Below are positions 67-19,385 of a DNA stretch of 20,069 nucleotides, piece after piece. The translations under genes and the position numbers were made by a program. This DNA is from a virus. How positions within the stretch are numbered: position 1 is the stretch's first letter; every line of letters begins with the position of its first letter. Location: positions 1 through 20,069 of IMG/VR virus record IMGVR_UViG_3300043468_000690, one strand, 5' to 3'. The notes under the pieces were generated by a model. The model had not been told where the DNA came from, ran no database searches, and saw only the letters and a program-made list of their open reading frames with translations.

Positions 67-141
67 GGGGGATTAGTGCTAATGGGAACACGCGGGCTTT
101 GCAAGCCTGAGTTAGGAGTTCGATCCTCCTATCCTCCACCA
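67..141 (+). tRNA. tRNA-Ala (anticodon TGC)
   Basis: A full cloverleaf: a 7-bp acceptor stem (GGGGGAT with ATCCTCC) including the G3-U70 wobble that marks alanine tRNAs, a D-arm, an anticodon stem CGGGC/GCCTG with loop TTTGCAA, T-arm AGGAG-TTCGATC-CTCCT, discriminator A and encoded CCA. It opens the array in this window. Its final A is also the first base of the ribosome binding site of the next protein gene. Confidence 0.95.
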
Positions 142-152
142 GGAGACATATA

Positions 153-395
153 ATGTGGCGAAATAGTTTAGGCGTATATACTGTAGCAACTGAGTTTATA
201 CCGTGGTTTCCAGAAACCAAAAAAGAATTTAAACCACTAGAGATTAAGCGAGTATACTATGAAGATACCAAAACTAAAACCGAGAAATCCGCTAGTAGCC
301 TTAGCACTGAAACGCAAGGCGGGGTCACACAAGAAGACCAACAAACAACTACGCCAGCAGTTGAACCGGCAACTGGAACTATAACTCAATGGTAG
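153..395 (+). CDS. Small phage protein of unknown function, ending inside a tRNA
   Basis: 80 residues, with ATG 6 bases after a clear AGGAGA site that begins at the CCA end of tRNA-Ala. The N-terminal half is mixed and aromatic (WRNSLGVYTV, IPWFPETKKEF). The C-terminal half is a low-complexity Ser/Thr/Gln-rich tail, probably disordered. No family recognised. The last 21 bases overlap the following tRNA-Lys, and the TAG stop lies in that tRNA's D-arm region (393-395). Cleavage at the tRNA 5' end would therefore leave a message with no stop codon. The good ribosome binding site and the spacing that fits the tRNA-protein alternation support a real gene, although function is unknown. Confidence 0.65.
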   Translation: MWRNSLGVYTVATEFIPWFPETKKEFKPLEIKRVYYEDTKTKTEKSASSLSTETQGGVTQEDQQTTTPAVEPATGTITQW

Positions 396-449
396 AGTAA
401 TCGGCTTTTAACCGATAAGTTCTGGGTTCGAGTCCCAGTGGTTCCACCA
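375..449 (+). tRNA. tRNA-Lys (anticodon TTT)
   Basis: Acceptor stem GGAACTA/TGGTTCC (one wobble), anticodon stem ATCGG/CCGAT with loop CTTTTAA, T-arm CTGGG-TTCGAGT-CCCAG, A73 and encoded CCA. It starts 21 bases before the end of the upstream reading frame. Confidence 0.95.
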
Positions 450-528
450 TATAAAAGTGCATTAGCAATCGCGATCTTTACCTAGGGCGGTGACCACCAC
501 TGCGGAGATACCTAGTGCACTTCTATAT
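450..528 (+). ncRNA. Structured spacer RNA between two tRNAs (not a canonical tRNA)
   Basis: The whole gap between tRNA-Lys and the next tRNA can fold. Bases 450-453 plus 455-461 (TATA, AAGTGCA) pair with 516-522 plus 524-527 (TGCACTT, TATA), around one A-C mismatch. Bases 482-486 (CTAGG) pair with 511-515 (CCTAG). Bases 487-492 (GCGGTG) pair with 498-503 (CACTGC) around a 5-base loop. No T-loop consensus, CCA or proper anticodon arm is present, so it is not an ordinary tRNA. It could be a processing guide, a decayed tRNA or a small RNA released when its neighbours are processed. Confidence 0.45.
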
Positions 529-629
529 GGCCCCGTAGCTTAACTGGTTAAAGAACCGAGCTTATACCTCGGCATAGCGCTGTCTAGATAAGGCAGAGTG
601 TGGGGGTTCGAGTCCCTCCGGGGCTACCA
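529..629 (+). tRNA. tRNA with anticodon TAT (probably Ile) and an oversized variable arm
   Basis: Acceptor GGCCCCG/CGGGGCT, T8 A9, D-loop with A14 and G18 G19, anticodon stem CCGAG/CTCGG with loop CTTATAC (anticodon TAT, reading AUA), T-arm GGGGG-TTCGAGT-CCCTC, A73 and CCA. The variable region is 29 bases (573-601) and contains a 5-bp hairpin, 580-584 with 592-596. That is far longer than the 4-5 bases normal for isoleucine tRNAs and longer than usual class II arms. The identity is therefore uncertain: an Ile tRNA with an insertion, or a class II (Leu/Tyr/Ser-type) body with an altered anticodon. Confidence 0.75.
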
Positions 630-633
630 AATT

Positions 634-725
634 GGATAGTTGGCCGAGAGGTCTAAGGCAGCGGTTTGCTAAACCGTCCTCGGATGAAAGTCTGAGCATA
701 GGTTCGAATCCTATACTATCCGCCA
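634..725 (+). tRNA. tRNA-Ser (anticodon GCT)
   Basis: Acceptor GGATAGT/ACTATCC, serine-type D-arm, anticodon stem GCGGT/ACCGT with loop TTGCTAA, long class II variable arm, T-loop TTCGAAT, discriminator G73 as expected for serine, and encoded CCA. Confidence 0.95.
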
Positions 726-740
726 CTACTAGGAGATTAC

Positions 741-1058
741 ATGGATCCGTATGTACAAAAAATAGAGCAGTACAGTATGCTCTTACAAAAGATTGCTGAA
801 AAGGCTGCTAAACTAAAGCGCGGCGACAGTGTAAGCTGGAACAGCAGTGGTGGCCGTGCTCGTGGCAAGATTACCAAAGTAATCACTAGTGGAAGCGAAG
901 CTATACCGGGCAGTAGTTTTACTATTACTGGTACGGAAGACGATCCTGGCACACTTATTCGTGTGTATCGTCCTGATGACAGTGGCAAGTATAAACCTAC
1001 AGATACTATTGTAGGCCACAAAATGAGCACATTAACTAAGATTGAAGCACTGGACTAA
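741..1058 (+). CDS. DUF2945-like (HVA1/TUDOR-type) small protein
   Basis: 105 residues, ATG 6 bases after AGGAG. After an N-terminal helix of about 28 residues, the stretch GDSVSWNSSGGRARGKI is the signature opening of DUF2945 (hypervirulence-associated TUDOR-like) domains, which are small beta-barrels. The rest (GTLIRVYRPDDSGKYKPT, then VGHKMSTLTKIEAL) fits the family's remaining strands. Family members occur in bacteria and phages and their biochemical role is not established. A TUDOR-like fold suggests nucleic acid or protein binding, but that is inference. It is followed 2 bases later by a Cys-rich protein gene, probably translationally coupled. Confidence 0.75.
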   Translation: MDPYVQKIEQYSMLLQKIAEKAAKLKRGDSVSWNSSGGRARGKITKVITSGSEAIPGSSFTITGTEDDPGTLIRVYRPDDSGKYKPTDTIVGHKMSTLTKIEALD

Positions 1059-1060
1059 AT

Positions 1061-1276
1061 ATGCCATGTTATAAATGCAGCAACGGCAAGTACAAATACG
1101 GTGAACGCGGCCGTTGTCAGTTTGACACGCTTGGTGCGTGCGAAGCAGCAGAACGAGCTATTCATGCACGGCAAAACCAACCAAAAAAGGCTGCTAAAGT
1201 AGAGCGCGGCTGTGGCGGTTGTGGCCGTGGATGCGACTGCCACGAGTGTCGTAAAAACAGAATTAAAAGTACATAG
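1061..1276 (+). CDS. Cysteine-rich small protein, probable metal binder
   Basis: 71 residues. The start ATG lies 2 bases after the previous stop with no strong ribosome binding site, suggesting coupling. The protein has an N-terminal CxxC pair (C3, C6), two further cysteines around 19 and 27, a basic middle, and a C-terminal cluster of Gly-Cys repeats (ERGCGGCGRGCDCHECRK). The cysteine density in a phage intracellular protein suggests zinc or other metal coordination; no named family is recognised. The N-terminal half resembles small proteins repeatedly found in phage tRNA regions, but function is unknown. Confidence 0.7.
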   Translation: MPCYKCSNGKYKYGERGRCQFDTLGACEAAERAIHARQNQPKKAAKVERGCGGCGRGCDCHECRKNRIKST

Positions 1277-1350
1277 CCCCCGATTTTTCTATAGTATACG
1301 GGGTCAGCAGTCCGAGGTTAAGGCTGGCTAAATATTCCTCGGGCCTTATC
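1277..1350 (+). promoter_or_regulatory. Folded leader upstream of the 1373 gene, with two competing helices
   Basis: A first stem pairs CCCCG (1278-1282) with CGGGG (1299-1303). Downstream, CCGAGG (1312-1317) can pair with CCTCGG (1337-1342), while TAAGGC (1319-1324) can pair with GCCTTA (1343-1348). The two helices interleave, so they could alternate or form a pseudoknot. The region ends about 12 bases before the AGGAGA ribosome binding site of the next gene. It is not recognised as a known riboswitch. Confidence 0.4.
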
Positions 1351-1372
1351 ACACAACACACAGGAGATCATT

Positions 1373-1600
1373 ATGAATCCATTTGAAATTCGCGCAGAAC
1401 TACTAAAAACTGCGGAAGAATACCTTAAACAACAACACGAACTGAATACTGAGTTTGCAAAGCGCACCTTTGATGCACTAGTGGCACAAGGTGAAAAAGT
1501 ACAAGCTGACTGGAAAGAGTATATGCCCAAGATGTATACCATTGAAGAAGTGGTAGATCAGGCTAAAAAGCTTTACGGCTTTGTAAATAATGCTAAGTGA
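1373..1600 (+). CDS. Small helical phage protein, paralogue of the 1784-2023 product
   Basis: 75 residues, ATG 6 bases after AGGAGA. Predicted mostly alpha-helical and charged. It is clearly related to the product at 1784-2023: both read FEIRAELLKTAEEYL / PDLRSELLETAQEYL near the start and EYMPKMYTIEEVVDQAKKL / EFMPPMYTMTDVMRLAKEL near the end, with the same length between. The shared E(Y/F)MPxMYT motif is the most distinctive feature. The two genes are tandem duplicates separated by one tiny gene. No function can be assigned. Confidence 0.8.
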   Translation: MNPFEIRAELLKTAEEYLKQQHELNTEFAKRTFDALVAQGEKVQADWKEYMPKMYTIEEVVDQAKKLYGFVNNAK

Positions 1601-1745
1601 TTTAATGCAGCGGCTTCGAGACTATTTTGAGCCGTACACACTTCAGGAGTTTATTGAAGAGTACGGCCCTGCAGACCATCACGAAGTCGAACGCCTAGAA
1701 AAACTCTGGGAACGTCTGCACAATAATCGTCAGTTTTGGTTCTAG
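1590..1745 (+). CDS. Tiny phage protein of unknown function
   Basis: 51 residues, starting within the last 11 bases of the preceding gene in another frame. A second in-frame ATG at 1605 is an alternative start. The product is acidic, aromatic and predicted helical (RLRDYFEPYTLQEFIEEYG, VERLEKLWERL). There is no strong Shine-Dalgarno, so expression probably depends on coupling to the upstream gene. Its composition looks protein-like, with no low-complexity runs, and it fills the gap between the two paralogues exactly. No family recognised. Confidence 0.65.
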   Translation: MLSDLMQRLRDYFEPYTLQEFIEEYGPADHHEVERLEKLWERLHNNRQFWF

Positions 1746-1783
1746 TTGCATAACCCGATAATAACAATAACAAAGAGGGAACC

Positions 1784-2023
1784 ATGGACTTACCAGACCT
1801 ACGCTCAGAGCTGTTAGAAACAGCACAAGAGTATTTAGACGATCATTATAAGATCACAAGAAAATTTGGCGAAGTGGCTTTTGAGGCAGCTGTAAAAGCT
1901 GGCACAAAAACGCTAAATGATCATAAAGAATTTATGCCACCAATGTACACTATGACAGATGTTATGCGACTAGCAAAAGAGCTAGAAACATTTGTTATAA
2001 GTGGAGTAGTACCAGCAAAATAG
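1784..2023 (+). CDS. Small helical phage protein, paralogue of the 1373-1600 product
   Basis: 79 residues, ATG preceded by GAGGGA at good spacing. It aligns along its length with the 1373-1600 protein (shared RxELLxTAxEYL and E(F/Y)MPxMYT blocks), indicating tandem duplication followed by divergence. The TAG stop at 2021-2023 overlaps the first two bases of the initiator tRNA gene, so tRNA 5' processing would break the stop codon. Function unknown. Confidence 0.8.
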   Translation: MDLPDLRSELLETAQEYLDDHYKITRKFGEVAFEAAVKAGTKTLNDHKEFMPPMYTMTDVMRLAKELETFVISGVVPAK

Positions 2024-2100
2024 CGGAGTAGGGAAGCTAGGACGTTCCCGCTAGTCTCATAAGCTAGAGATCGCAGGTTCAAATCCTGCCTCCGCAACCA
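2022..2100 (+). tRNA. Initiator tRNA-fMet (anticodon CAT)
   Basis: The anticodon loop is CTCATAA. Initiator-specific features: position 1 (A) does not pair with A72, unlike elongator tRNAs; the D-stem has purine 11/pyrimidine 24 (G-C); and the 3' end, TTCAAATCC then CCGCAACCA, closely matches bacterial initiator tRNAs. T-arm GCAGG/CCTGC, encoded CCA. The anticodon stem lacks the three consecutive G-C pairs typical of initiators, which is a reservation. It starts inside the stop codon of the preceding gene. Confidence 0.85.
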
Positions 2101-2160
2101 AACCCCACCGCCAGGGACAGTAGCCAGCCTGTCAGAGCGAGAGAGCGTGGGCCTTAAGCA
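2101..2160 (+). other. Short spacer with weak secondary structure
   Basis: No gene is seen between tRNA-fMet and the terminator. CCCAC (2104-2108) can pair with GTGGG (2147-2151), enclosing GACAG/CTGTC (2116-2120 with 2129-2133). This may be a further structured spacer RNA, but the helices are short. Confidence 0.25.
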
Positions 2161-2165
2161 GAGGG

Positions 2166-2210
2166 CTTAAGTTTGCTAGAATATTCTACCAAACTTAAGT
2201 CTTTTATTTT
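2166..2210 (+). terminator. Rho-independent terminator
   Basis: A perfect 10-bp stem, CTTAAGTTTG (2166-2175) with CAAACTTAAG (2190-2199), is followed by TCTTTTATTTT. Between the arms the loop is itself palindromic (TAGAATATTCTA), so the hairpin could extend past a C-C mismatch. It separates the first tRNA/protein group from the next. Confidence 0.8.
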
Positions 2211-2230
2211 AACTAAATTATTAAACTACT

Positions 2231-2464
2231 ATGAGTGACGGCGGAAAAGGAAGTAGCAGAAGACCTATGAGTGTTAGTCAACAAGAATGGGATTCCAGGT
2301 GGGATGCTATTTTTTGTAGAGATGAACCAAATATAATCAAAGCGCAATACGTAATTGACGAGCAGTGCCCTAAGTGTGCAACCGAACTTAAAATTGCTCC
2401 AGGAATTGGGCCGTTCTGCCCCAATAAAGATTGTGACGTAAAAGATAATATCTCGCTAGTGTAA
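2231..2464 (+). CDS. Zinc-ribbon-like small protein
   Basis: 77 residues. The N-terminal part is Ser/Gly/Arg-rich and probably flexible. The C-terminal half has CPKC (about 45-48) and FCPNKDC (about 62-68), a four-cysteine arrangement typical of a zinc ribbon. The ribosome binding site is poor and no promoter was seen after the upstream terminator, so expression level is unclear. The last 15 bases and the TAA stop lie inside tRNA-Trp, so tRNA processing would remove the stop. No named family. Confidence 0.7.
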   Translation: MSDGGKGSSRRPMSVSQQEWDSRWDAIFCRDEPNIIKAQYVIDEQCPKCATELKIAPGIGPFCPNKDCDVKDNISLV

Positions 2465-2523
2465 TGGCAGCATACCAGTCTCCAAAACTGTTGGTCGGGG
2501 TTCGAGTCCCTGGCGGGATGCCA
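2450..2523 (+). tRNA. tRNA-Trp (anticodon CCA)
   Basis: Acceptor ATCTCGC/GCGGGAT with one wobble, anticodon loop CTCCAAA on a CAGT/ACTG stem, T-arm CGGGG-TTCGAGT-CCCTG, G73 as in bacterial Trp tRNAs, and encoded CCA. The 5' end overlaps the preceding gene by 15 bases. Confidence 0.93.
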
Positions 2524-2533
2524 AAATATTAAT

Positions 2534-2562
2534 TTGAATTTGTTCGCCGAACAGTGTATAAT
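2534..2562 (+). promoter_or_regulatory. Sigma-70 type promoter P1
   Basis: TTGAAT (2534-2539), a 17-base spacer and TATAAT (2557-2562) lie upstream of the gene at 2588. An upstream TTG at 2534, in frame with that gene, is the -35 box itself, which rules it out as the start codon. Confidence 0.85.
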
Positions 2563-2587
2563 ATATCTTTGCACTGTAGGAATAACC

Positions 2588-2803
2588 ATGAAATTGATTA
2601 GCAGAATATCTCCACCGATATTTCTTGTGCCTGCTTATGGTAGAACTTATGCTACCAAAGAAGCAGCGCTACAAGCATGGAATAGTGGCAAGGACTTTCA
2701 AATTTATAGAGGCCCGTATTGTTCTATACGGGACGAAAAAGAACTACACAATATGTCTAGTGGAGTATTTATACAATACGACACTGGAACAGTAGAAGTA
2801 TAG
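2588..2803 (+). CDS. Small phage protein of unknown function
   Basis: 71 residues. The ATG at 2588 was chosen because it follows AGGAA by 5 bases and lies downstream of promoter P1. The protein starts MKLISRISPPIFLVPAYGRT and looks like a small globular fold with beta strands (FQIYRGPYCSI, GVFIQYDTGTVEV). No family recognised. The final base of the TAG stop is the first base of tRNA-Tyr, so RNase P cleavage there would break the stop codon. Confidence 0.75.
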   Translation: MKLISRISPPIFLVPAYGRTYATKEAALQAWNSGKDFQIYRGPYCSIRDEKELHNMSSGVFIQYDTGTVEV

Positions 2804-2896
2804 GGTGTGTTGATGCTACGGAGTGTGCATCCCCGGACTGTAAATCCGGTCCCGCGTTGGTAAACACTGTTGGTTCGACTCCAACCACACCCACCA
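2803..2896 (+). tRNA. tRNA-Tyr (anticodon GTA)
   Basis: Perfect acceptor GGGTGTG/CACACCC, D-stem GATGC/GCATC, anticodon stem CCGGA/TCCGG with loop CTGTAAA, long class II variable arm, T-arm TTGG-TTCGACT-CCAA, A73 and encoded CCA. Confidence 0.95.
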
Positions 2897-2900
2897 ATAT

Positions 2901-2984
2901 GCCCCTGTGGTGGAATGGTAGACACAGGAGACTTAAAATCTCCCGCTTTAGGGCGTGCCAGTTCGACTCTGGCCAGGGGTACCA
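2901..2984 (+). tRNA. tRNA-Leu (anticodon TAA)
   Basis: Acceptor GCCCCTG/CAGGGGT, anticodon stem GGAGA/TCTCC with loop CTTAAAA, class II variable arm, T-arm GCCAG-TTCGACT-CTGGC, A73 and CCA. Confidence 0.95.
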
Positions 2985-2995
2985 AGGAATAGTGT

Positions 2996-3181
2996 ATGAA
3001 AAAACAATCACTAAATGAAATTTTGCTGCAAGTATTGGGCAGTAGAGAAATGGTAGAAACTTGGTGGGCTACACCAAATAAAGCATTTGATATGGAAATA
3101 CCAGACGATCTAATACACAGCAATCGTAAGAATGAAGTAATAAAGTATATACTGGCTCAAGTTAGCGGCGAGTATAGTTAA
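2996..3181 (+). CDS. DUF2384 (MbcA/ParS/Xre-type)-like small protein
   Basis: 61 residues, ATG about 7 bases after AAGGA at the tRNA-Leu CCA end. The region from VLGSREMVETWWATPNKAF to the end resembles the C-terminal domain of MbcA/ParS/Xre antitoxins (DUF2384), which typically have a W-x2-TPN-x-A(L/F) core followed by a helical end. In chromosomal toxin-antitoxin pairs this domain neutralises a RES or ParT-type toxin. No toxin partner is adjacent here, so an orphan antitoxin or a re-used domain is possible. The stop sits 1 base before tRNA-Asp and survives tRNA processing. Confidence 0.6.
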   Translation: MKKQSLNEILLQVLGSREMVETWWATPNKAFDMEIPDDLIHSNRKNEVIKYILAQVSGEYS

Positions 3182-3182
3182 T

Positions 3183-3257
3183 GGCCTAGAAGTGTTCATG
3201 GACGCACGCCAGCCTGTCACGCTGGTAGAAGGGGATCGTTACCCCTCTGGGTCGCCA
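3183..3257 (+). tRNA. tRNA-Asp (anticodon GTC)
   Basis: Acceptor GGCCTAG/CTGGGTC with wobbles, anticodon stem CCAGC/GCTGG with loop CTGTCAC, T-arm AGGGG-ATCGTTA-CCCCT, G73 expected for Asp, and encoded CCA. The T-loop starts with A instead of the near-universal T54. Confidence 0.9.
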
Positions 3258-3271
3258 TACTAAAGTACTAT

Positions 3272-3346
3272 TCCCTAGTAGCTCAGCGGTAGAGCAGCAG
3301 ACTGTTAATCTGTTGGTCCGTGGTTCGATCCCACGCTGGGGAGCCA
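3272..3346 (+). tRNA. tRNA-Asn (anticodon GTT)
   Basis: Acceptor TCCCTAG/CTGGGGA, anticodon stem GCAGA/TCTGT with loop CTGTTAA, T-arm CGTGG-TTCGATC-CCACG, G73 and encoded CCA. Confidence 0.95.
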
Positions 3347-3361
3347 AACATGGAGACAACT

Positions 3362-3517
3362 ATGCTAGTTTATCATGGCCGTAATAAAGATACGTGTGAG
3401 TGGGTTATTAAAATGTTTAAAAATGACCCACTAACAAAAGATAACTTGACAACACAGGCTTGGATAAAGGCGTGTGAAGATTACTTAGAATCCATTGGGG
3501 ATTCGCCAAGTTGGTAA
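3362..3517 (+). CDS. Tiny phage protein of unknown function, ending inside a tRNA
   Basis: 51 residues. The ATG at 3362 follows GGAGA by 6 bases. An in-frame ATG at 3350 would precede that site and is less likely, and anything earlier would fall inside tRNA-Asn. The product is small, charged and probably helical (DTCEWVIKMFKNDPL, AWIKACEDYLESIG). The final 22 bases overlap tRNA-Gln and the TAA stop lies in its D-arm, so 5' maturation of that tRNA would create a stop-less message. No family recognised. Confidence 0.65.
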   Translation: MLVYHGRNKDTCEWVIKMFKNDPLTKDNLTTQAWIKACEDYLESIGDSPSW

Positions 3518-3571
3518 GGCATCGGATTTTGATTCCGACACGCGGTGGTTCGAGTCCATCATCCCCAGCCA
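3496..3571 (+). tRNA. tRNA-Gln (anticodon TTG)
   Basis: Acceptor TGGGGAT/ATCCCCA, anticodon stem TCGGA/TCCGA with loop TTTTGAT, T-arm GGTGG-TTCGAGT-CCATC, G73 and encoded CCA. The weak U1-A72 pair is typical of glutamine tRNAs. Confidence 0.95.
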
Positions 3572-3584
3572 CAAACACACAATT

Positions 3585-4055
3585 ATGCGAAAATTTAATC
3601 TTGAAGAAGTAAAGCAATTTATTGTACAATCTAGTCCTGAAACAAAAATTTATCTTGGCGCTGACAGTGAACGAGTTGTGTACAACAACAAGTGGCATGC
3701 AGACTATACGCTGGCTGTAGTAGTGCACATTGACGGCAAACACGGTTGCAAGATTTTTGGCAATGTAATTCGTGAGCTAGACTACGATCAGCGCAAAGAC
3801 AAGCCTGCACTTAGGTTGATGAATGAAGTGTACAAAGTAGCTGACCTATTCAATGAGCTAAGCGATGTGTTGCAAGATCGACACGTTGAAGTGCACCTTG
3901 ACCTAAACCCTAGCGACCGATACGCTAGTAGTCAAGTAATAAATCAAGCAATTGGTTATATTCGCGGAGTTTGTAATATAGAACCACAAGTTAAACCAGA
4001 AGCATTTGCAGCAACTTACGCAGCCGACAGACTAAAATTTGTATTGAGTAACTAA
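3585..4055 (+). CDS. DUF458/YkuK-like RNase H-fold protein
   Basis: 156 residues. The ATG at 3585 is the first plausible start after tRNA-Gln; upstream codons in frame lie inside the tRNA. The pattern matches the YkuK/DUF458 family, which has a predicted RNase H-like fold: YLGADSER near residue 28, YTLAVVVHIDGKHGCKIFGN as the second strand pair, LRLMNEVYKVADLF as the helix, VEVHLDLNPSDRYASS with acidic residues, then a VKPEAFAATYAADRL end. Acidic residues in the strands could form a metal site, as in RNase H folds. Nuclease activity is inferred, not shown. It is followed 1 base later by another small gene. Confidence 0.8.
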   Translation: MRKFNLEEVKQFIVQSSPETKIYLGADSERVVYNNKWHADYTLAVVVHIDGKHGCKIFGNVIRELDYDQRKDKPALRLMNEVYKVADLFNELSDVLQDRHVEVHLDLNPSDRYASSQVINQAIGYIRGVCNIEPQVKPEAFAATYAADRLKFVLSN

Positions 4056-4056
4056 A

Positions 4057-4275
4057 ATGGAACCGCTAATGAAGAAAAATCGCTTTGATCTTGAGCAAGA
4101 AATTATGGAGTGCTGGAATGTTACCAAGGACATTGAAAACTTCTATTATGCACAAGAAGAAATGGACGAAGATGAGCGCTTGAATTACCTGCTTGGTTTA
4201 CAATCAATTTATGAAGTAAGGTTTAATAAGCTGTGGAAAACTTTTGAGCAGTGCGTTAGCAACAGACAAATCTAA
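4057..4275 (+). CDS. Small acidic helical phage protein
   Basis: 72 residues from ATG 4057. An in-frame ATG at 4069 (giving MKKNRFDLEQEI) has a GGA 7 bases upstream and may be the true start. The protein is acidic, probably a helical hairpin, with RFDLEQEIMECWNVTKDI followed by an acidic linker and IYEVRFNKLWKTFEQC. Related small proteins are common in T4-like phages, but no function is known to me. The stop ends exactly one base before tRNA-Cys, so tRNA processing would leave the stop as the last codon of the message. Confidence 0.75.
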   Translation: MEPLMKKNRFDLEQEIMECWNVTKDIENFYYAQEEMDEDERLNYLLGLQSIYEVRFNKLWKTFEQCVSNRQI

Positions 4276-4352
4276 CTCGGCGTGACCCGAATGGTTAGGG
4301 AGCGGATTGCAAATCCGTTTTATGCAGGTTCAAGTCCCTGTCGTCGAGTCCA
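4276..4352 (+). tRNA. tRNA-Cys (anticodon GCA)
   Basis: Acceptor CTCGGCG/CGTCGAG, anticodon stem GCGGA/TCCGT with loop TTGCAAA, discriminator U73 as required by cysteinyl-tRNA synthetase, and CCA. The T-stem pairs best as GCAGG/CCTGT around an 8-base loop (TTCAAGTC), one base more than the usual 7. Confidence 0.88.
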
Positions 4353-4427
4353 GGATGTATAGCACAGCGGTAGTGCACTTCCTTCATACGGAATAGGCCA
4401 GTAGTTCGAATCTACTTACATCCACCA
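4353..4427 (+). tRNA. tRNA with anticodon CAT (elongator Met or Ile2)
   Basis: Starts directly after the CCA of tRNA-Cys. Acceptor GGATGTA/TACATCC, D-stem GCAC/GTGC, anticodon loop TTCATAC on a TTCC/GGAA stem, T-arm AGTAG-TTCGAAT-CTACT, A73 and CCA. The perfect 1-72 pair excludes an initiator. Whether C34 is modified to lysidine (reading AUA) cannot be told from the sequence. Confidence 0.88.
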
Positions 4428-4429
4428 AT

Positions 4430-4504
4430 AGCCATGTAGCTCAGAGGCAGAGCAATCGGTTGATAACCGATAGGTCGACATTTCGAAACTGTCCATGGCT
4501 ACCA
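4430..4504 (+). tRNA. tRNA-Ile (anticodon GAT)
   Basis: Perfect acceptor AGCCATG/CATGGCT, anticodon stem ATCGG/CCGAT with loop TTGATAA, A73, CCA. The T-stem closing pair 53-61 is U-C instead of the nearly invariant G-C, leaving a 4-bp T-stem (GACA/TGTC). Confidence 0.9.
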
Positions 4505-4509
4505 TATTT

Positions 4510-4584
4510 GCCGGTTTAGCTCAGTGGTAGAGCAACCGCCTTGTAAGCGGTAGGTCGTCAGTTCAAATCCGACAACCGGCACCA
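4510..4584 (+). tRNA. tRNA-Thr (anticodon TGT)
   Basis: Perfect acceptor GCCGGTT/AACCGGC, anticodon stem ACCGC/GCGGT with loop CTTGTAA, T-arm GTCAG-TTCAAAT-CCGAC with one mismatch, A73 and CCA. Its CCA abuts the tmRNA acceptor piece. Confidence 0.93.
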
Positions 4585-4652
4585 GTTTATAGTTGTATGA
4601 AGCCTAGCAAAAGGCGTCTTGGACGTGGGTTCGACTCCCACCTGGTCCACCA
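4585..4652 (+). ncRNA. ssrA: tmRNA acceptor piece (3' domain, encoded first)
   Basis: Contains one strand of the P2 helix, a small GCCT/AGGC hairpin, the CTTGGAC connector typical of tmRNA, T-arm GTGGG-TTCGACT-CCCAC, acceptor strand CTGGTCC, A73 and an encoded CCA. It has no D-arm or anticodon arm and cannot form a complete tRNA alone, which is what exposes the permutation. The 5' boundary is set by the CCA end of tRNA-Thr. Confidence 0.88.
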
Positions 4653-4722
4653 GAAACATATTTGCAGACCGTGCCACTCCTTGTGAAAAGGATCGTACTG
4701 CAGGACGAAGTATGTTTCTGAT
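4653..4722 (+). other. tmRNA intervening segment, expected to be removed
   Basis: Links the CCA end to the acceptor 5' strand. CAGAAACATA (4651-4660, including the last two bases of CCA) pairs perfectly with TATGTTTCTG (4711-4720). Within it TGCAG pairs with CTGCA and TCCTT with AAGGA. Such segments are cut out in known two-piece tmRNAs, leaving two RNAs held by base pairing. Confidence 0.8.
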
Positions 4723-4910
4723 GGGCCAGTCATGGTTTCGACAGGGTGACAAGTAGTAAAGTGGACAACTCGGCAATGCAGAAGCCGTAGGGTTGGGATT
4801 ACCTGGCCGTAGACGCAAACAACGTAAATGCAAACGACGAAAGTTTTGCTTTAGCCGCCTAAACTCGGCTTAGGGTTTGCCCGTTTCCTCGTAACAGAAT
4901 AACGGGCCAC
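4723..4910 (+). ncRNA. ssrA: tmRNA coding piece with proteolysis tag frame
   Basis: Begins with acceptor strand GGGCCAG and the tmRNA D-loop. The tag frame runs from a GCA resume codon at 4830 to TAA at 4860-4862 and encodes ANDESFALAA; with the alanine carried by tmRNA itself the full tag is A-ANDESFALAA. The ALAA end is the ClpXP/ClpAP recognition form seen in proteobacteria, and the AND start matches E. coli. The bases before the resume codon (CGTAAAT) are similar to those in known tmRNAs. Confidence 0.9.
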
Positions 4911-4911
4911 T

Positions 4912-5000
4912 GGAGGGTTAACTAGGCTGGGCCTGGCACTGTTTTGAACACAGATGGACTTGGAAACAGGTTGGAGTTCGATTCTACCATCCCTCCTCCA
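4912..5000 (+). tRNA. Probable tRNA-Ser (anticodon TGA), imperfect T-arm
   Basis: An 89-base class II shape: acceptor GGAGGG/CCCTCC, an anticodon stem CTGT/ACAG with loop TTTGAAC (TGA), a long variable arm, T-loop TTCGATT and a final CCA. Problems are only three of five T-stem pairs, an extra base before the 3' acceptor strand, and U73 instead of the G73 typical of serine tRNAs. It may be a decaying tRNA, an unusual variant or contain a sequencing error. Confidence 0.6.
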
Positions 5001-5028
5001 TTGTTAAATATATTAATACAAGTATATT
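5001..5028 (+). promoter_or_regulatory. Possible weak promoter
   Basis: TTGTTA (5001-5006), a 16-base spacer and TATATT (5023-5028) precede the 33-residue gene at 5075. It matches sigma-70 boxes less well than the other promoters, in a very A/T-rich stretch where chance matches are common. Confidence 0.3.
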
Positions 5029-5074
5029 TACCCATGGAAAAATTATTTTTAGCAGTATCAATTAGGAGAAATTG

Positions 5075-5176
5075 ATGCAATATATACTTCTATTTCCTCC
5101 TAAACAAATAATAAGGTGGTACATAGACGAGTTCGGATTCTTACAGTTAGAGCTAGTTGAAATGCCACAAGATTAA
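5075..5176 (+). CDS. 33-residue phage protein of unknown function
   Basis: Starts at an ATG 6 bases after a perfect AGGAG and ends with TAA one base before tRNA-Gly. The product is MQYILLFPPKQIIRW followed by an acidic, hydrophobic stretch ending EMPQD. It is too short for family assignment. The strong ribosome binding site and the neat fit between RNA genes argue for translation. The stop survives tRNA 5' processing. Confidence 0.6.
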   Translation: MQYILLFPPKQIIRWYIDEFGFLQLELVEMPQD

Positions 5177-5177
5177 T

Positions 5178-5254
5178 GCGTGCGTCGTATAGCCTGGTTA
5201 TTATTGCTGGTTGCCAACCAGTGGACGCGAGTTCGAATCTCGCCGCCCGCACCA
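5178..5254 (+). tRNA. tRNA-Gly (anticodon GCC)
   Basis: Acceptor GCGTGCG/CGCCCGC with a T4-C69 mismatch, anticodon stem GCTGG/CCAGT with loop TTGCCAA, T-arm GCGAG-TTCGAAT-CTCGC, A73 and CCA. The next glycine tRNA has the same 4-69 mismatch. Confidence 0.9.
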
Positions 5255-5255
5255 A

Positions 5256-5329
5256 GCGTGGTTAGTTTAATGGTAAAACAGTAGGCTTCCAACCTTCAGT
5301 TAAGAGTTCGATTCTCTTACCCCGCACCA
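5256..5329 (+). tRNA. tRNA-Gly (anticodon TCC)
   Basis: Acceptor GCGTGGT/ACCCCGC with a T4-C69 mismatch, anticodon loop CTTCCAA, T-arm AAGAG-TTCGATT-CTCTT, A73 and CCA. The anticodon stem has one T-T mismatch. It lies one base after the first Gly tRNA. Confidence 0.9.
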
Positions 5330-5345
5330 CACAGGAACACAAATT

Positions 5346-5798
5346 ATGTTATCTAAAACACTACAAAACTTAAGTAGTGCTCTTGCTGGCGAGAGTACTG
5401 CACACATCAAGTACCGGTACTTTGCAAAAATTGCAAGGGACGAAGGTTACGAAGATATTGCCAAGCATTTTGAGCATACTGCCGATCAAGAAATTAAACA
5501 CGCTTGGGGACATCTAGAGCTGTTAATTGGCAGACCTAGTACACGCGAATGTTTATTAAAGGCTATTGAAGGCGAAACTTACGAATTTACAGAAATGTAT
5601 CCAAGATTCGAAGAAGACGCAGAACAAGAAGGTAACGAATCAGCAATACTAGAAGCTAGGTTACAGGCCGAAGAATCAAAGCAACACGCACAAGAATTTT
5701 CAGAAATGCTCAGCAAGGCAGAAGCAAGATTCGCAGCACTAGCAAAAGTGGAAGAGCGACACGCTAATGCTTATAAGAAAGTATTGGAGTCAATGTAA
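5346..5798 (+). CDS. Rubrerythrin diiron (ferritin-like) domain protein
   Basis: 150 residues, ATG after an AGGAA-type site. Rubrerythrins reduce peroxide using a diiron site in a four-helix bundle. The expected ligands are visible: E16 in helix 1, E49-x2-H52 in helix 2, E77 and E80 followed by the hallmark MYPRFEEDAEQEG in helix 3, and E136-x2-H139 in helix 4. The usual C-terminal rubredoxin domain is absent from this chain but is encoded by the next gene, whose ATG overlaps this stop (TAATG). The pair would rebuild a whole rubrerythrin system. A cytoplasmic peroxide-defence role during infection is likely but inferred. Confidence 0.92.
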   Translation: MLSKTLQNLSSALAGESTAHIKYRYFAKIARDEGYEDIAKHFEHTADQEIKHAWGHLELLIGRPSTRECLLKAIEGETYEFTEMYPRFEEDAEQEGNESAILEARLQAEESKQHAQEFSEMLSKAEARFAALAKVEERHANAYKKVLESM

Positions 5799-5935
5799 TG
5801 GAATATGTGTGCGTAATCTGTGGACATATCCACGACGAACAAATTGAAGGCGACTGGGATTCTTTACCTGATAACTTTGAATGCCCTGAGTGTGGCTGTG
5901 GTAAAGAAGACTACGAAGTGTATTCTTTCGAATAA
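5798..5935 (+). CDS. Rubredoxin-like iron protein, partner of rubrerythrin
   Basis: 45 residues, with the start overlapping the rubrerythrin stop by one base. C5-x2-C8 and C29-x2-C32, each followed by Gly, form the FeS4 knuckles, and the spacing, LPDNFECPECG and the GK(E/D)D end match rubredoxins and the C-terminal domain of rubrerythrin. It would pass electrons to the diiron protein encoded upstream. The usual hydrophobic residue in CGVGK is a cysteine here (CGCGK). It ends one base before tRNA-Val. Confidence 0.9.
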   Translation: MEYVCVICGHIHDEQIEGDWDSLPDNFECPECGCGKEDYEVYSFE

Positions 5936-5936
5936 T

Positions 5937-6011
5937 GCGCGATTAGCTCAGCGGTAGAGCGTCTCCTTTACACGGAGAGGGTCGGCGGTTCAAACCCGTC
6001 ATCGCGTACCA
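5937..6011 (+). tRNA. tRNA-Val (anticodon TAC)
   Basis: Acceptor GCGCGAT/ATCGCGT, anticodon stem TCTCC/GGAGA with loop TTTACAC, T-arm GGCGG-TTCAAAC-CCGTC, A73 and CCA. Confidence 0.95.
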
Positions 6012-6021
6012 AATTATTAAC

Positions 6022-6050
6022 TTGAATTCATATCCCCAAATTGGTATAAT
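6022..6050 (+). promoter_or_regulatory. Sigma-70 type promoter P2 with overlapping inverted repeat
   Basis: TTGAAT (6022-6027), 17 bases, then TATAAT (6045-6050) preceded by TGG (extended -10). CCCCAAAT (6034-6041) and ATTTGGGG (6059-6066) are perfect inverted copies flanking the -10 box, an operator-like layout. It drives the DUF1289 gene. Confidence 0.85.
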
Positions 6051-6066
6051 ATATACTGATTTGGGG
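6034..6066. promoter_or_regulatory. 8-bp inverted repeat around the P2 -10 box, possible operator
   Basis: CCCCAAAT and ATTTGGGG arms are separated by 17 bases containing TATAAT. The left arm lies before the expected transcription start, so the symmetry would act in DNA (repressor or activator site) for P2 transcripts. For read-through transcripts the same hairpin followed by ATTTTTTC could act as a terminator. Confidence 0.5.
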
Positions 6067-6077
6067 ATTTTTTCATT

Positions 6078-6217
6078 ATGGAATCACCATGCGTTAAAAT
6101 CTGCAAGCTAGACCCTAAACTGCAGTATTGTTTAGGATGCAAGCGAACTGTAGAAGAAATACAAAAGTGGACGTACTATACGCCCGAACAGCGACAGAAA
6201 ATCATTAAAGAATTACT

Positions 6218-6227
<10 letters not shown>
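6078..6227 (+). CDS. DUF1289-family small cysteine-rich protein
   Basis: 49 residues. The start MESPCVKICKLDP, then YCLGCKRTVEEIQKW and a C-terminal helix (PEQRQKIIKEL), match DUF1289 proteins, which are small proteobacterial proteins with four conserved cysteines (here C5, C9, C18, C21) likely to bind a metal. Their role is not established. Transcription is from promoter P2 about 25 bases upstream, and there is no strong ribosome binding site. The last 10 bases, with the TAG stop, are positions 1-10 of the next tRNA: the stop is its conserved U8-A9-G10. The family is mainly cellular, suggesting capture from a host. Confidence 0.85.
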
Positions 6228-6295
<68 letters not shown>

Positions 6296-9678: not shown

Positions 9679-10632
9679 ATGAATAAATTGGAACAATTTC
9701 TTAACATCGCAAGTCGGGCTTATTATGCCGGACAACCCATTATTAGTGACGAGCAGTTTGACAAACTCGCCGAGAGCTGCGGCTACTCGGCTGTTGGTGC
9801 ACAGGCTACAGGCTCAACTGAAAAGCATATGTACCAAATGTACTCGCTGCAAAAGTACTATGAAGACGAGGGCAAGCGTCCTCTTGAAGGTTATCAAGAC
9901 CTTAGCATGACAGTAAAGCTTGACGGTGCAGCAATCAGCTTGCTGTATGTCAACGGAGAACTAGTGCGTGCACTTACTCGTGGCGATGGCACAGAAGGCC
10001 AAATTATTACAGACAAGATTCTGGCGCATAAGGGTCTAGTTCCGCACAGTATTCCAGTGACTGGTATCTATCAAATCACTGGTGAGATTGTAGCTCCTAA
10101 ACATATTGAGAATGCTCGCAACTATGCGGCAGGAGCACTAAACCTAAAAGATATTGAAGAATTCAAGACTAGGGCGGTAAGCTTTTTTGCATACGGCATT
10201 CAGCCTAGCCTGTGTCCAAAGTTCGATCAAGATCTAGATATGTTGAGAACATTTGGGTTTAGCGTAATCAGCGATGCGGACCTAGACAAAATTTACCCTT
10301 GCGATGGTATTGTGTTCCGTGTAAACGACAACACAGTTTTTCAAAGCCTTGGGTATACGGCCAAACATCCTCGCGGAGCGTATGCCCGCAAGGAGCGAGC
10401 CGAGCATGTAGAAACCAAACTACTCGATGTAGAGTGGCAAGTTGGTAAAAGCGGTAAGGTTACCCCTGTAGCCATACTTGAGCCTGTTATGATTGGTGAT
10501 GCTGTGGTATCCAGAGCTACACTAAACAACCCAGGTTTTATCGAAATGCTTGATTTGCAGATAGGAGACACGGTGGCCGTAATTCGCAGTGGCGAAATTA
10601 TTCCGTGTATCCTACACAAAGTAGATGCGTAA
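9679..10632 (+). CDS. ligA: NAD-dependent DNA ligase, N-terminal (adenylation + OB) subunit
   Basis: 317 residues, against about 670 for a complete bacterial LigA. Domain Ia is marked by YYAGQPIISDEQFDKL (NMN-binding region). Adenylation motif I is K80-L-D-G with K80 as the nucleotide-accepting lysine, followed by TRGDGTEG (100-107), G-E 135-136 (motif III), FFAYG (169-173), C-D-G-I-V-F-R (208-214, motif IV), and YTAKHPRGAYARKE (226-239, motif V). The OB domain contains VGKSGKVTPVA, EPVMIGDAVVSRATLNN and GDTVAVIRSGEIIP. It ends exactly where the zinc finger would start in LigA; that half is encoded by the next gene. There is no Shine-Dalgarno and the start is nearly leaderless from P5. Confidence 0.95.
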   Translation: MNKLEQFLNIASRAYYAGQPIISDEQFDKLAESCGYSAVGAQATGSTEKHMYQMYSLQKYYEDEGKRPLEGYQDLSMTVKLDGAAISLLYVNGELVRALTRGDGTEGQIITDKILAHKGLVPHSIPVTGIYQITGEIVAPKHIENARNYAAGALNLKDIEEFKTRAVSFFAYGIQPSLCPKFDQDLDMLRTFGFSVISDADLDKIYPCDGIVFRVNDNTVFQSLGYTAKHPRGAYARKERAEHVETKLLDVEWQVGKSGKVTPVAILEPVMIGDAVVSRATLNNPGFIEMLDLQIGDTVAVIRSGEIIPCILHKVDA

Positions 10633-10664
10633 ATTTCCTAGCCTTGGGCAAACGAAATTTTCGC

Positions 10665-10693
10665 TTGTCAACGAGCAGTTAATACTGTATAAT
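10665..10693 (+). promoter_or_regulatory. Sigma-70 type promoter P6, between the two ligase genes
   Basis: TTGTCA (10665-10670), 17 bases, TATAAT (10688-10693), 25 bases before the ATG of the ligase C-terminal gene. A dedicated promoter here argues that the split is functional, not a sequencing error. Confidence 0.85.
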
Positions 10694-10718
10694 ATCTATA
10701 TAAATTAACAAAGCAACT

Positions 10719-11480
10719 ATGAGAATCACAATACCCACTGAGTGCCCTTGCTGTAACTACCCACTAGAACTGGTCAACGATCAGCTCTTCTGTCGTAACA
10801 CAGCCTGTGGAGCGCAGCTTACTAAGAAGGTCGAGCATTTTTGCAAAACCCTTAGTATTAAGGGTATGGGTTCTCGCACAATAGAGAAACTAGGTTTGGG
10901 CGATATAACTGAGTTGTATTATCTAGACTTGGCCGAAGTTACTGAGGCACTTGGTAGTGAGAAAGTAGCCACAAAGTTACTGGATGAAATTGAAAAGAGT
11001 AAACAGGCTGATCTGGCCACGGTTATCAGTTCTTTTTCTATCCCACTAGTGGGTCAAACCGCAAGTAAAAAGTTGTGTGAAGTAGTTACATCTGTAGACG
11101 AGATCAGTTTCGAGACTTGCAAGCAGGCCGGTTTAGGTGATAAAGTTACACAAAATCTACTAAGCTGGCTAGAAACCGATTTCCAAGAGATGAGAGAGTT
11201 CTTGCCTTTCTCGTTTCGTTCCGACAAACCTGTAATTGCAAATACAAACTCAAAAACTATTTGTATTACTGGTAAACTGCATTCTTATAAAACTAAAGCC
11301 GAAGCCTATAAAGCATTAGAGGTGGCAGGCTACAAACCAGTAGAGTCTGTAACTAAAACTACGGACTATTTAGTTGACGAAGAAGATAAAGGTAGTTCAA
11401 AACGTAAAAAAGCCGAGTCTCTCGGTATTACAATCATCACAAATTTAAATACTTTCTTGAAAGAAAATACAAATGACTGA
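10719..11480 (+). CDS. NAD-dependent DNA ligase, C-terminal (zinc finger, HhH, BRCT) subunit
   Basis: 253 residues. A zinc finger with C9-x2-C12-x12-C25-x4-C30 (TECPCCNYPL, LFCRNTACGAQ) matches the LigA Zn domain. Helix-hairpin-helix units follow: SIKGMGSRTIEKL (46-58) and SIPLVGQTASKKL (107-119). A BRCT domain runs from about 178 (SKTICITGKLHSYK) to the end, with the conserved VTKTTDYLV. These are the domains that bind nicked DNA in bacterial ligases and are missing from the upstream 317-residue protein, so the two must associate to form a full enzyme. It overlaps the next gene by 8 bases. Own promoter P6; weak ribosome binding site. Confidence 0.93.
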   Translation: MRITIPTECPCCNYPLELVNDQLFCRNTACGAQLTKKVEHFCKTLSIKGMGSRTIEKLGLGDITELYYLDLAEVTEALGSEKVATKLLDEIEKSKQADLATVISSFSIPLVGQTASKKLCEVVTSVDEISFETCKQAGLGDKVTQNLLSWLETDFQEMREFLPFSFRSDKPVIANTNSKTICITGKLHSYKTKAEAYKALEVAGYKPVESVTKTTDYLVDEEDKGSSKRKKAESLGITIITNLNTFLKENTND

Positions 11481-12225
11481 AAAGACTAAAAAGTGGTCCG
11501 ATGCCGCTGTTGATAAACTAATGAGTATTATTGGTGGCCAGCGTCCCGTTAGCGCTGACACTGTTGAGCGTGCTGCTCAAGAATTGGGCGACGAGTTTAC
11601 TGCTCGTAGCGTTGCCAGCAAGCTGCGTCAACTGGACGTCGAAGTAGCTTCTATGGCTAAGGAAAAGACCAGTGCCTTTACTGAAGACGAAGGTGCTGAA
11701 CTTGCTGAGTTTGTTATCGCTAACAGCGGTAATTTTACTTACAAGCAAATCGCTGAAAACTTTGCCAGTGGCAAGTTCTCGGCTAAGCAAATTCAGGGTA
11801 AGCTGCTTGCTCTTGAACTGACTGGCAGTGTCAAGCCTGCTGAGAAGGTTGAAGTTGCTCGTACTTATACCGATGCAGAAGAAGCAAAGTTTGTTGCTAT
11901 GGCTGAAAGCGGTAGCTTCATTGAAGACATTGCCTCTGCTCTGAATAAGACTGTGGCTAGCGTTCGTGGTAAGGCTCTGAGCCTGACACGCAAGGGACAA
12001 ATCGCTAAGATTCCCGCACAGCGCACCAGCCATGCTAAGGAGCAGGTTGATCCTGTTAGCGCACTTGGCGACAAGATCCACAGCATGACAGTTGCTGAGA
12101 TCGCTAAGGCTGTTGACAAGACTGAGCGTGGTCTTCGTACTCTGCTGACCCGTCGTGGCATTAAAGTTGCCGATTATGACGGTGCTGCTAAGAAGGCCAA
12201 GGCAGAAGCAAAAGCTGCCGCCTAA
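11473..12225 (+). CDS. Protein with four helix-turn-helix/Myb-like repeats and a basic tail
   Basis: 250 residues. Four related HTH units: about 7-55 (KWSDAAVDKLMSIIGG, then FTARSVASKLRQLDVEV), about 66-115 (AFTEDEGAELAEFVI, then YKQIAENFASGKFSAKQIQG), about 129-178 (YTDAEEAKFVAMAESGSF, then NKTVASVRGKALSL) and about 193-233 (HSMTVAEIAKAVDKTERGLR, LLTRRGIKV). Each starts with an aromatic plus T/S-D/E and ends with a recognition-like helix. The tail (AAKKAKAEAKAAA) is Ala/Lys-rich and histone-like. It probably binds DNA at multiple sites, perhaps as a nucleoid protein or regulator. A strong terminator follows. The unit type is shared with the 8330 product. Confidence 0.8.
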   Translation: MTEKTKKWSDAAVDKLMSIIGGQRPVSADTVERAAQELGDEFTARSVASKLRQLDVEVASMAKEKTSAFTEDEGAELAEFVIANSGNFTYKQIAENFASGKFSAKQIQGKLLALELTGSVKPAEKVEVARTYTDAEEAKFVAMAESGSFIEDIASALNKTVASVRGKALSLTRKGQIAKIPAQRTSHAKEQVDPVSALGDKIHSMTVAEIAKAVDKTERGLRTLLTRRGIKVADYDGAAKKAKAEAKAAA

Positions 12226-12245
12226 TCTGCAGATACAAATGTTTA

Positions 12246-12279
12246 GGTCGGGAGTTTGTAAAAGGCTCCCGGCCTTTTT
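12246..12279 (+). terminator. Rho-independent terminator
   Basis: A 9-bp stem GGTCGGGAG/CTCCCGGCC (12246-12254 with 12266-12274, one wobble) and a TTTTT run follow the HTH-repeat gene. Confidence 0.92.
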
Positions 12280-12297
12280 ACTTTGTGGAGTCGAAGT

Positions 12298-12597
12298 ATG
12301 AAAGTTACAATAACATATCACGACAACGAGTCTTTTACAATTGAAGAAGTTGTAAAACAAGCTATGCACAATTACGGCAAAGCGGCACAAGTTGAAGTTA
12401 TGCCAGAAAGTACAATGGCATACGACATGATTTACTTTGGCTTGCAACAATTAATTACTCATGAGCAGTTAAGTCTGCTTTTTGATAAAGACACTGCGTA
12501 CCAGCAAGATATAAAAAAGCTAAGGGACGCAGTACTTTATAAGGTTACAGAAATTATTGACCAAGTTATAATTGATAATGAATCGAAAGTAGGGTAG
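12298..12597 (+). CDS. Small acidic phage protein upstream of the helicase
   Basis: 99 residues. The ATG at 12298 was chosen because GGAG lies 7 bases upstream; an in-frame TTG at 12283 falls in the terminator tail. The N-terminus looks like a beta strand pair (MKVTITYHDNESFTIEEV) and the rest is helical and acidic (MIYFGLQQLITHEQLSLLFD, VLYKVTEIIDQVIID). No family recognised. It ends 2 bases before the helicase start, so the two are likely coupled. A helicase-loading or accessory role would be guesswork. Confidence 0.75.
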   Translation: MKVTITYHDNESFTIEEVVKQAMHNYGKAAQVEVMPESTMAYDMIYFGLQQLITHEQLSLLFDKDTAYQQDIKKLRDAVLYKVTEIIDQVIIDNESKVG

Positions 12598-12599
12598 CC

Positions 12600-13985: not shown

Positions 13986-13986
13986 C

Positions 13987-14841: not shown

Positions 14842-14866
14842 CCTAAATACGCTATAAGAAAGTATT

Positions 14867-18940: not shown

Positions 18941-18950
18941 AAAATTTAAC

Positions 18951-18979
18951 TTGTCACGGGATAGCTAATCTGCTATAAT
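18951..18979 (+). promoter_or_regulatory. Sigma-70 type promoter P7
   Basis: TTGTCA (18951-18956), 17 bases, TATAAT (18974-18979) preceded by TGC (extended -10), 19 bases before the ATG at 18999. Would serve the 18999 gene and the single-strand binding protein gene. Confidence 0.87.
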
Positions 18980-18998
18980 ATAATATAAGTTTAGGAAT

Positions 18999-19382: not shown

Positions 19383-19385
19383 AAA

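What the first reader, a model, noticed from the sequence alone, without database searches (positions are those of the whole stretch)
4585..4910. Phage-encoded, circularly permuted two-piece tmRNA
Seen directly: the T-arm/acceptor/CCA half lies upstream of the acceptor-5'/D-loop/tag half. The two acceptor strands pair over 7 bp with the alanine-specific G3-U70, and the tag frame encodes ANDESFALAA. Established: permuted ssrA genes with an excised intervening segment are known in alphaproteobacteria, a betaproteobacterial group and some cyanobacteria. Finding one inside a phage tRNA array is unusual, and I am not certain it has been described. It would let the phage run ribosome rescue and tagging itself, and raises the question of whether phages spread the permuted form between bacterial lineages.
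Basis: partly seen in the sequence, partly recalled or inferred. Interest (0 to 1): 0.93.

Follow-up and report, generated by a model that had tools for sequence, protein, structure and literature searches.

The report
Phage two-piece tmRNA gene, permuted
A bacterial virus carries, inside its block of tRNA genes, its own rearranged two-piece copy of the RNA that frees stuck ribosomes; such viral copies are already known, but the short segment cut out of the middle turns out to be a conserved hairpin that is shared between otherwise very different viral genes, which was not expected.

Summary
ARAGORN calls a permuted tmRNA (tag ANDESFALAA); Rfam RF04321 matches 4591-4862 (E 3.7e-24) and RF01850 matches 4528-4938 (E 1.5e-36). 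Acceptor pairing, G3-U70, A73-CCA and tag are intact. The contig is a T5-like phage fragment with 19 called tRNA genes; the tmRNA sits directly behind tRNA-Thr.

The kind is already known. A 2022 survey counted 53 two-piece tmRNAs in phage genomes, and Stenotrophomonas phage Marzo was reported with a beta-class tmRNA in a tRNA cluster. One pattern scan of IMG/VR returned at least 119 viral stretches.

New here is the excised segment (4653-4722). In 131 loci it forms a stem starting right after CCA and ending four bases (usually UGAU/UAAU) before the second piece; pairing is 90% against 56% in controls. Its core sequences form families that are 85-100% alike between phages whose tmRNA halves are only about 60% alike. 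One core (not the window's) also sits between tRNA genes of phage tRNA arrays, again inside a compensating stem, and matches no Rfam family.

Verdict: a new member of a known kind, most likely functional with host SmpB. The spacer hairpin deserves follow-up.

The parts
4510..4584 (+). tRNA-Thr(UGU), directly upstream; its 3' end sets the earliest possible start of the tmRNA
   Evidence: ARAGORN
4585..4652 (+). acceptor piece (first in the gene): 5' strand of the P2 region, T-arm, acceptor 3' strand CUGGUCC (4642-4648), A73 (4649), CCA (4650-4652)
   Evidence: RF04321/RF01850 alignments; coordinates
4653..4722 (+). excised intervening segment, 70 nt: stem 4653-4663 with 4708-4718, core 4664-4707, then UGAU 4719-4722 before the second piece
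   Evidence: fold (z -4.4 with the acceptor stem); inverted repeat 4642-4663/4708-4729; comparative pairing
4723..4911 (+). messenger piece (second in the gene): acceptor 5' strand GGGCCAG 4723-4729, D-loop region, P2 strand, tag frame, 3' structures
   Evidence: 3' end inferred from the neighbour at 4912
4830..4862 (+). tag reading frame ANDESFALAA plus UAA
   Evidence: ARAGORN
4853..4874 (+). probable pseudoknot around the tag stop codon: AGCCG/CGGCU stem with CCUA/UAGG
   Evidence: read from sequence; stem in fold; not tested by covariation
4879..4907 (+). 3' terminal hairpin GCCCGUU...AACGGGC
   Evidence: fold; RF01850 alignment
4912..5000 (+). tRNA-Ser(UGA)-like sequence directly downstream, not called by ARAGORN or Rfam, T-stem has mismatches
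   Evidence: read by eye; coordinates; weak in fold
67..6295 (+). tRNA array: 19 tRNA genes called, with the tmRNA among them
   Evidence: ARAGORN, Rfam
9679..20027 (+). T5-like replication block: NAD ligase in two genes, DnaB-like helicase, primase, family A polymerase, helicase, SSB

Best explanation
It is a working circularly permuted tmRNA gene of a T5-like phage, related to the betaproteobacterial (RF01850) type. One transcript of the tRNA array is cut by the host's tRNA enzymes: the neighbouring tRNA-Thr 3' end and tRNA-Ser-like 5' end would free the outer ends; RNase P would cut before G4723 and 3' trimming would stop at CCA 4652, so that the 70-nt spacer is lost. The two pieces stay together through the acceptor stem and P2, are charged with alanine (G3-U70), and with the host's SmpB rescue stalled ribosomes and add ANDESFALAA, a ClpXP-type tag. 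The spacer hairpin, which continues the acceptor stem through ACCA facing UGAU, probably holds both cut sites in one helix during folding and processing. Shown by sequence: anatomy, pairing, tag, spacer stem. Inferred: transcription, processing, charging, use of host SmpB, benefit to the phage.
For: Two Rfam models and ARAGORN; 7 of 7 acceptor pairs and G3-U70 here, and in all 131 compared loci (U70 and the terminal UCC were fixed by the search pattern); intact tag ending ALAA; same arrangement (tRNA-Thr directly upstream) in L037, L066, L079, L083, so the gene is kept in related phages; downstream half 76-83% identical to those of L056, L079 and L037; no SmpB in 15 tmRNA-bearing viral records, including long ones, with 10 of 14 control genomes positive; spacer stem conserved with all pair types.
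Against: No expression or processing data. The window is a 20-kb fragment of a metagenomic virus with unknown host. The beta_tmRNA score (120 bits) is well below that of true bacterial members (169-296 bits), so part of the fold is diverged. A tmRNA-like RNA without rescue activity (as suggested for phage DS6A, PMC4131195) cannot be excluded by sequence alone.
Confidence: 0.86

Rival explanations
1. The gene is made but does not rescue ribosomes: it acts as a decoy that ties up host SmpB or alanyl-tRNA synthetase, or it is decaying.
For: Phage DS6A carries a tRNA-like-domain-only tmRNA, and a similar molecule inhibits host tmRNA (PMC4131195, PMC11915505). Some viral loci have odd tags, for example those of L019, L041 and L042.
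Against: Here the resume codon, the full 10-codon tag ending ALAA, the stop, the D-loop and the acceptor identity elements are all intact; tags ending ALAA recur in relatives with diverged sequence.
Confidence: 0.1
2. The gene is bacterial: host DNA in the contig, or a metagenome assembly chimera joined at the conserved T-arm or D-loop.
For: Such chimeras exist: contig L123 joins a standard Bacillota-type tmRNA exactly at the T-arm/CCA to part of a permuted one.
Against: Phage-type replication genes on the same strand; tRNA genes on both sides; several viral contigs have the same tRNA-Thr-tmRNA order; both flanks of the window's spacer resemble the same relatives.
Confidence: 0.04
3. For the spacer: likeness between phages is due only to recent recombination of cassettes at the conserved flanks, with no function of the core itself.
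For: Mosaics with sharp breakpoints: L037 and L066 share upstream half and spacer but not the tag half; L007 and L116 share spacer and tag end but not the middle. 34 pairs show the reverse, like halves with unlike spacers.
Against: Acceptor stems around like spacers differ in 15 of 24 independent pairs; the spacer stem differs about twice as often per base as the core (13.8% against 7.4%) with 19 double compensatory changes; one core occurs outside tmRNA next to tRNA genes.
Confidence: 0.45

Closest known systems
Permuted two-piece tmRNA, Rfam RF04321 / betaproteobacterial type RF01850
   Same: gene order, acceptor and T-arm, D-loop, P2, tag frame; both models match above their cut-offs
   Different: lower score than bacterial beta members (120 against 169-296 bits); 70-nt spacer; the model's terminal stem is absent and a tRNA-Ser-like sequence follows instead
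Phage-encoded two-piece tmRNA of methylophage Melnitz (PMC9004378)
   Same: permuted tmRNA carried by a lytic phage; host SmpB presumably used
   Different: Melnitz type is alphaproteobacterial and linked to a glutamine riboswitch; here beta type in a tRNA array of a T5-like phage
tmRNA of Stenotrophomonas phages Marzo, Yut2 and relatives (Menderavirus; PMC8928761)
   Same: permuted beta-type tmRNA between tRNA genes; related upstream 66 bases (78.8%)
   Different: T4-like myophage; tag VAANDDSYTVRIAA as called by ARAGORN; spacer of another family
Viral contigs L037, L079, L083, L056
   Same: tmRNA of the same clade; L037, L079 and L083 have tRNA-Thr directly upstream; rubrerythrin/rubredoxin genes also in L037 (read)
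   Different: spacer unrelated to the window's (58-62% identity against about 49% for shuffled sequence)

Membership tests
Permuted tmRNA (RF04321) | covariance model match above gathering score, full length | tested here: met
   123.5 bits against 47, model 1-213 of 213
Permuted tmRNA (RF04321) | 3' acceptor half upstream of 5' half with a removable spacer | tested here: met
Permuted tmRNA (RF04321) | alanine identity: G3-U70, A73, CCA | tested here: met
   G3-U70 in 131 of 131 compared loci, U70 fixed by the pattern
Permuted tmRNA (RF04321) | tag reading frame with resume codon and stop | tested here: met
   ANDESFALAA, 4830-4862
Permuted tmRNA (RF04321) | two mature RNAs made by processing | not testable with these tools
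   needs RNA from infected cells
Betaproteobacterial type (RF01850) | model match above gathering score | tested here: met
   120.3 bits against 84
Betaproteobacterial type (RF01850) | terminal stem of the model | tested here: not met
   positions 4911-4938 aligned with many non-pairs; a tRNA-Ser-like sequence lies there. The gene is therefore filed as a permuted tmRNA (RF04321) related to the beta type, not as a typical beta member
T5-like phage (Demerecviridae) | T5-type replication genes in order, two-gene NAD ligase | tested here: met
   polymerase about 49% identical over 98% to Vibrio phages Thalassa and others; families; T5-likeness of those phages from general knowledge
T5-like phage (Demerecviridae) | T5-type virion genes | not tested
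   not in the 20-kb record
Known self-cleaving ribozyme (for the spacer core) | match to an Rfam ribozyme family | tested here: not met
   no Rfam match at E up to 10 in the window region other than tmRNA, tRNA and chance hits, nor at E up to 1 at other cores

The most novel reading that the evidence does not exclude
The 'discarded' spacer of phage permuted tmRNAs is itself an RNA element: a hairpin with a freely compensating stem and a conserved core, of several families, that phages place directly behind CCA ends in tRNA arrays and in tmRNA genes, where it guides or protects 3' and 5' end processing or is released as a small RNA. For the window's own core this rests on five loci, all in tmRNA genes.
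Probability: 0.4. Interest if true: 0.75.

Novelty: new member of a known kind. Interest (0 to 1): 0.5.

Why it matters
The gene adds a T5-like, beta-related example to the known phage tmRNAs and shows that the type is common in uncultured viruses. The comparison made possible by it is the more useful part. It shows that phage tmRNA genes are mosaics and that the segment thought to be thrown away is a conserved hairpin shared across divergent genes, one family of which also sits between tRNA genes. That makes two questions testable: how the ends of two-piece tmRNAs and of phage tRNAs are made, and whether phages exchange these modules among themselves.

Tried and rejected
Spacer families in cultured phages: no match for two concatenated spacer sets in 50,697 records. 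Spacers in host genomes: 15 spacers against 399 Burkholderiales genomes, one 28-nt marginal hit. Known RNA family for the cores: none. SmpB in the phages: none found. L123 as a natural tandem or permutation intermediate: rejected as an assembly chimera. The tmRNA spacer as a hammerhead because of CUGAUG: rejected, since the first bases vary (UGAU, UAAU, UGAC). One analysis of the F2 stem used a register off by one and was redone. First attempts at parsing bacterial loci failed and were redone. Literature on the spacer hairpin: no held paper found; the 2004 paper on the third two-piece lineage is not held, and other early papers were not read, so an earlier description cannot be excluded.

Full report
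Observation. ARAGORN calls a permuted tmRNA with tag ANDESFALAA. Rfam's merged permuted model and its betaproteobacterial model both match well above their cut-offs. The acceptor strands 4642-4648 and 4723-4729 form 7 pairs with G3-U70; CCA is at 4650-4652 and the tag at 4830-4862. The gene fills the space between tRNA-Thr (to 4584) and a tRNA-Ser(UGA)-like sequence (from 4912, my reading; not called by any program). ARAGORN's bounds, 4560-4953, are too wide.

Setting. The record is a 20,069-base virus record of IMG/VR. ARAGORN lists 19 tRNA genes and the tmRNA in the first 6.3 kb. The rest holds phage replication genes: NAD ligase in two genes, DnaB-like helicase, primase, family A polymerase, a helicase, a single-strand binding protein. 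The polymerase is closest to Vibrio phages of the T5 type (about 49% over 98%). The host is unknown.

What is known. Phage-encoded two-piece tmRNA has been published: PMC9004378 found ssrA in 402 of 18,146 phage genomes and 53 two-piece structures, most from water; PMC8928761 reports a betaproteobacteria-class tmRNA in a tRNA cluster of Stenotrophomonas phage Marzo. The Marzo relative Yut2 is called permuted by ARAGORN and both Rfam models. PMC11915505 lists 79 phage tmRNAs and describes RF04321. A pattern for T-arm, CCA, spacer and D-loop hit at least 119 stretches of IMG/VR and 9 in 84,980 bacterial and archaeal genomes. Of 150 Burkholderiales genomes 4 had a beta-type match above cut-off.

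Function. All elements needed for charging, entry and tagging are intact. No SmpB gene was found in 15 viral records with such tmRNAs, including ones of 95-355 kb, so the host's SmpB would be used. This is inference; nothing here shows expression.

The spacer stem. Window bases 4653-4663 pair with 4708-4718; with the acceptor stem this is a 22-nt inverted repeat, 86% complementary, one of three found in the tRNA region, and the fold is far better than shuffled sequence (z -4.4). In 131 loci, 49 after removing similar ones, 12 pairs starting right after CCA and ending four bases before G1 are formed in 90% of cells, against 56% (sd 2%) when 3' ends are exchanged between loci and 37-53% when the register is slid; all pair types occur. 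Bacterial spacers, mostly alpha type, often form a similar stem: 11 of 25 have at least 6 pairs against 10% of shuffles. The structure lines of RF04321, RF01850 and RF01849 show no pairs in the spacer.

Spacer families and mosaics. Spacer cores fall into discrete families. The window's core is shared with L016, L057, L140 and L141. Window and L057 are 96% identical in the spacer but 57% in either half (shuffled sequence gives about 49-51%), whereas window and L056 are 83% identical downstream and 62% in the spacer. Among 120 viral loci, 129 pairs have spacers more than 85% identical; 68 of these have downstream halves below 70%, involving 61 loci. None of 272 bacterial pairs with downstream halves below 70% has a spacer above 65% (the bacterial set is small and mainly alpha type). 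The reverse also occurs: 34 viral pairs have like halves and unlike spacers. Alignments show sharp breakpoints at the D-loop and at the start of the tag, so recombination between phages is clear. Part of this could be assembly error, since L123 is such a chimera, but pairs with unequal spacers, compensated stems and changed acceptor stems (15 of 24 independent pairs) are hard to explain that way.

Is the core constrained? In 24 independent discordant pairs the stem differs in 13.8% of bases and the core in 7.4%, with 19 double compensatory stem changes. Scans by core sequence gave 49, 22, 40, 17 and 8 stretches for five other families (core conservation in these sets is inflated because they were found by core sequence). 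One family (core CTTTGAGGTCTTGGTCGTTACCnGCGTAGCAAAAACGGCGACAG) occurs 28 times in tmRNA spacers and 20 times elsewhere. Many of these lie in arrays of up to 27 tRNA genes, for example between tRNA-Gln and tRNA-Trp in L211, and behind tRNA-Arg in L229, tRNA-Asp in L233 and tRNA-Lys in L230 and L232. Stems there have 10-21 pairs; 95.5% are paired against 72% (sd 3.5%) in controls, 11 sequences. The stem often includes the tRNA's own CCA, for example ACCATATTGAAGC facing GTTTCAATATGGT in L225. No Rfam family matches these sites. One core of another family, that of L056, lies between a tmRNA and tRNA-Gly in L308. The window's own core was found only in tmRNA genes.

Interpretation. The window gene is a new member of a known kind and most likely works as a normal two-piece tmRNA. 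The spacer hairpin most likely serves end processing. Why unrelated cores are kept and passed around is open: recombination alone, selection on the core, or both.

Spread between bacteria. Not shown. Herbaspirillum sp. LeCh32-8 has both a standard tmRNA (217 bits) and a permuted beta-type one with an odd tag, a possible acquisition from elsewhere, but its source was not traced.

Noticed in passing
window 5346-5935: A rubrerythrin-like gene followed by a small rubredoxin-like gene in a T5-like phage tRNA array, without a PHROG match; the same pair is readable in L037.
   Followed up: partly
window 4912-5000: tRNA-Ser(UGA)-like sequence with T-stem mismatches, missed by ARAGORN and Rfam; an intact tRNA-Ser(UGA) lies further downstream of the tmRNA in L056.
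   Followed up: partly
L208, L211, L225, L229, L230, L232, L233, L239, L242 and others: A conserved hairpin element (core GAGGTCTTGGTCGTTACC...GCAAAAACGGCGACAG) between tRNA genes of phage tRNA arrays, not in Rfam.
   Followed up: partly
L123 6045-6511: Public Bacillota MAG contig that is an assembly chimera of a standard tmRNA and part of a permuted tmRNA, joined at the shared T-arm.
   Followed up: yes
L124 7322-7667 (Herbaspirillum sp. LeCh32-8) and L130: Extra permuted beta-type tmRNA with tags ANDSQFLAYGT and ANEPQFVAYGT; LeCh32-8 also has a standard tmRNA.
   Followed up: partly
L009, L029, L032, L035, L038 and others: Viral permuted tmRNAs with very long predicted tags (28-31 residues, such as ANADTFDFSAMSFTGNTVRGAANESRFALAA), as called by ARAGORN.
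   Followed up: no
L211 10286-10556: Sub-threshold match to GOLLD RNA (106 bits, cut off by the locus end) in a viral contig with a large tRNA array.
   Followed up: no
window 529-629: ARAGORN calls a tRNA of unknown identity with a four-base anticodon (tacc) in a 101-nt gene.
   Followed up: no
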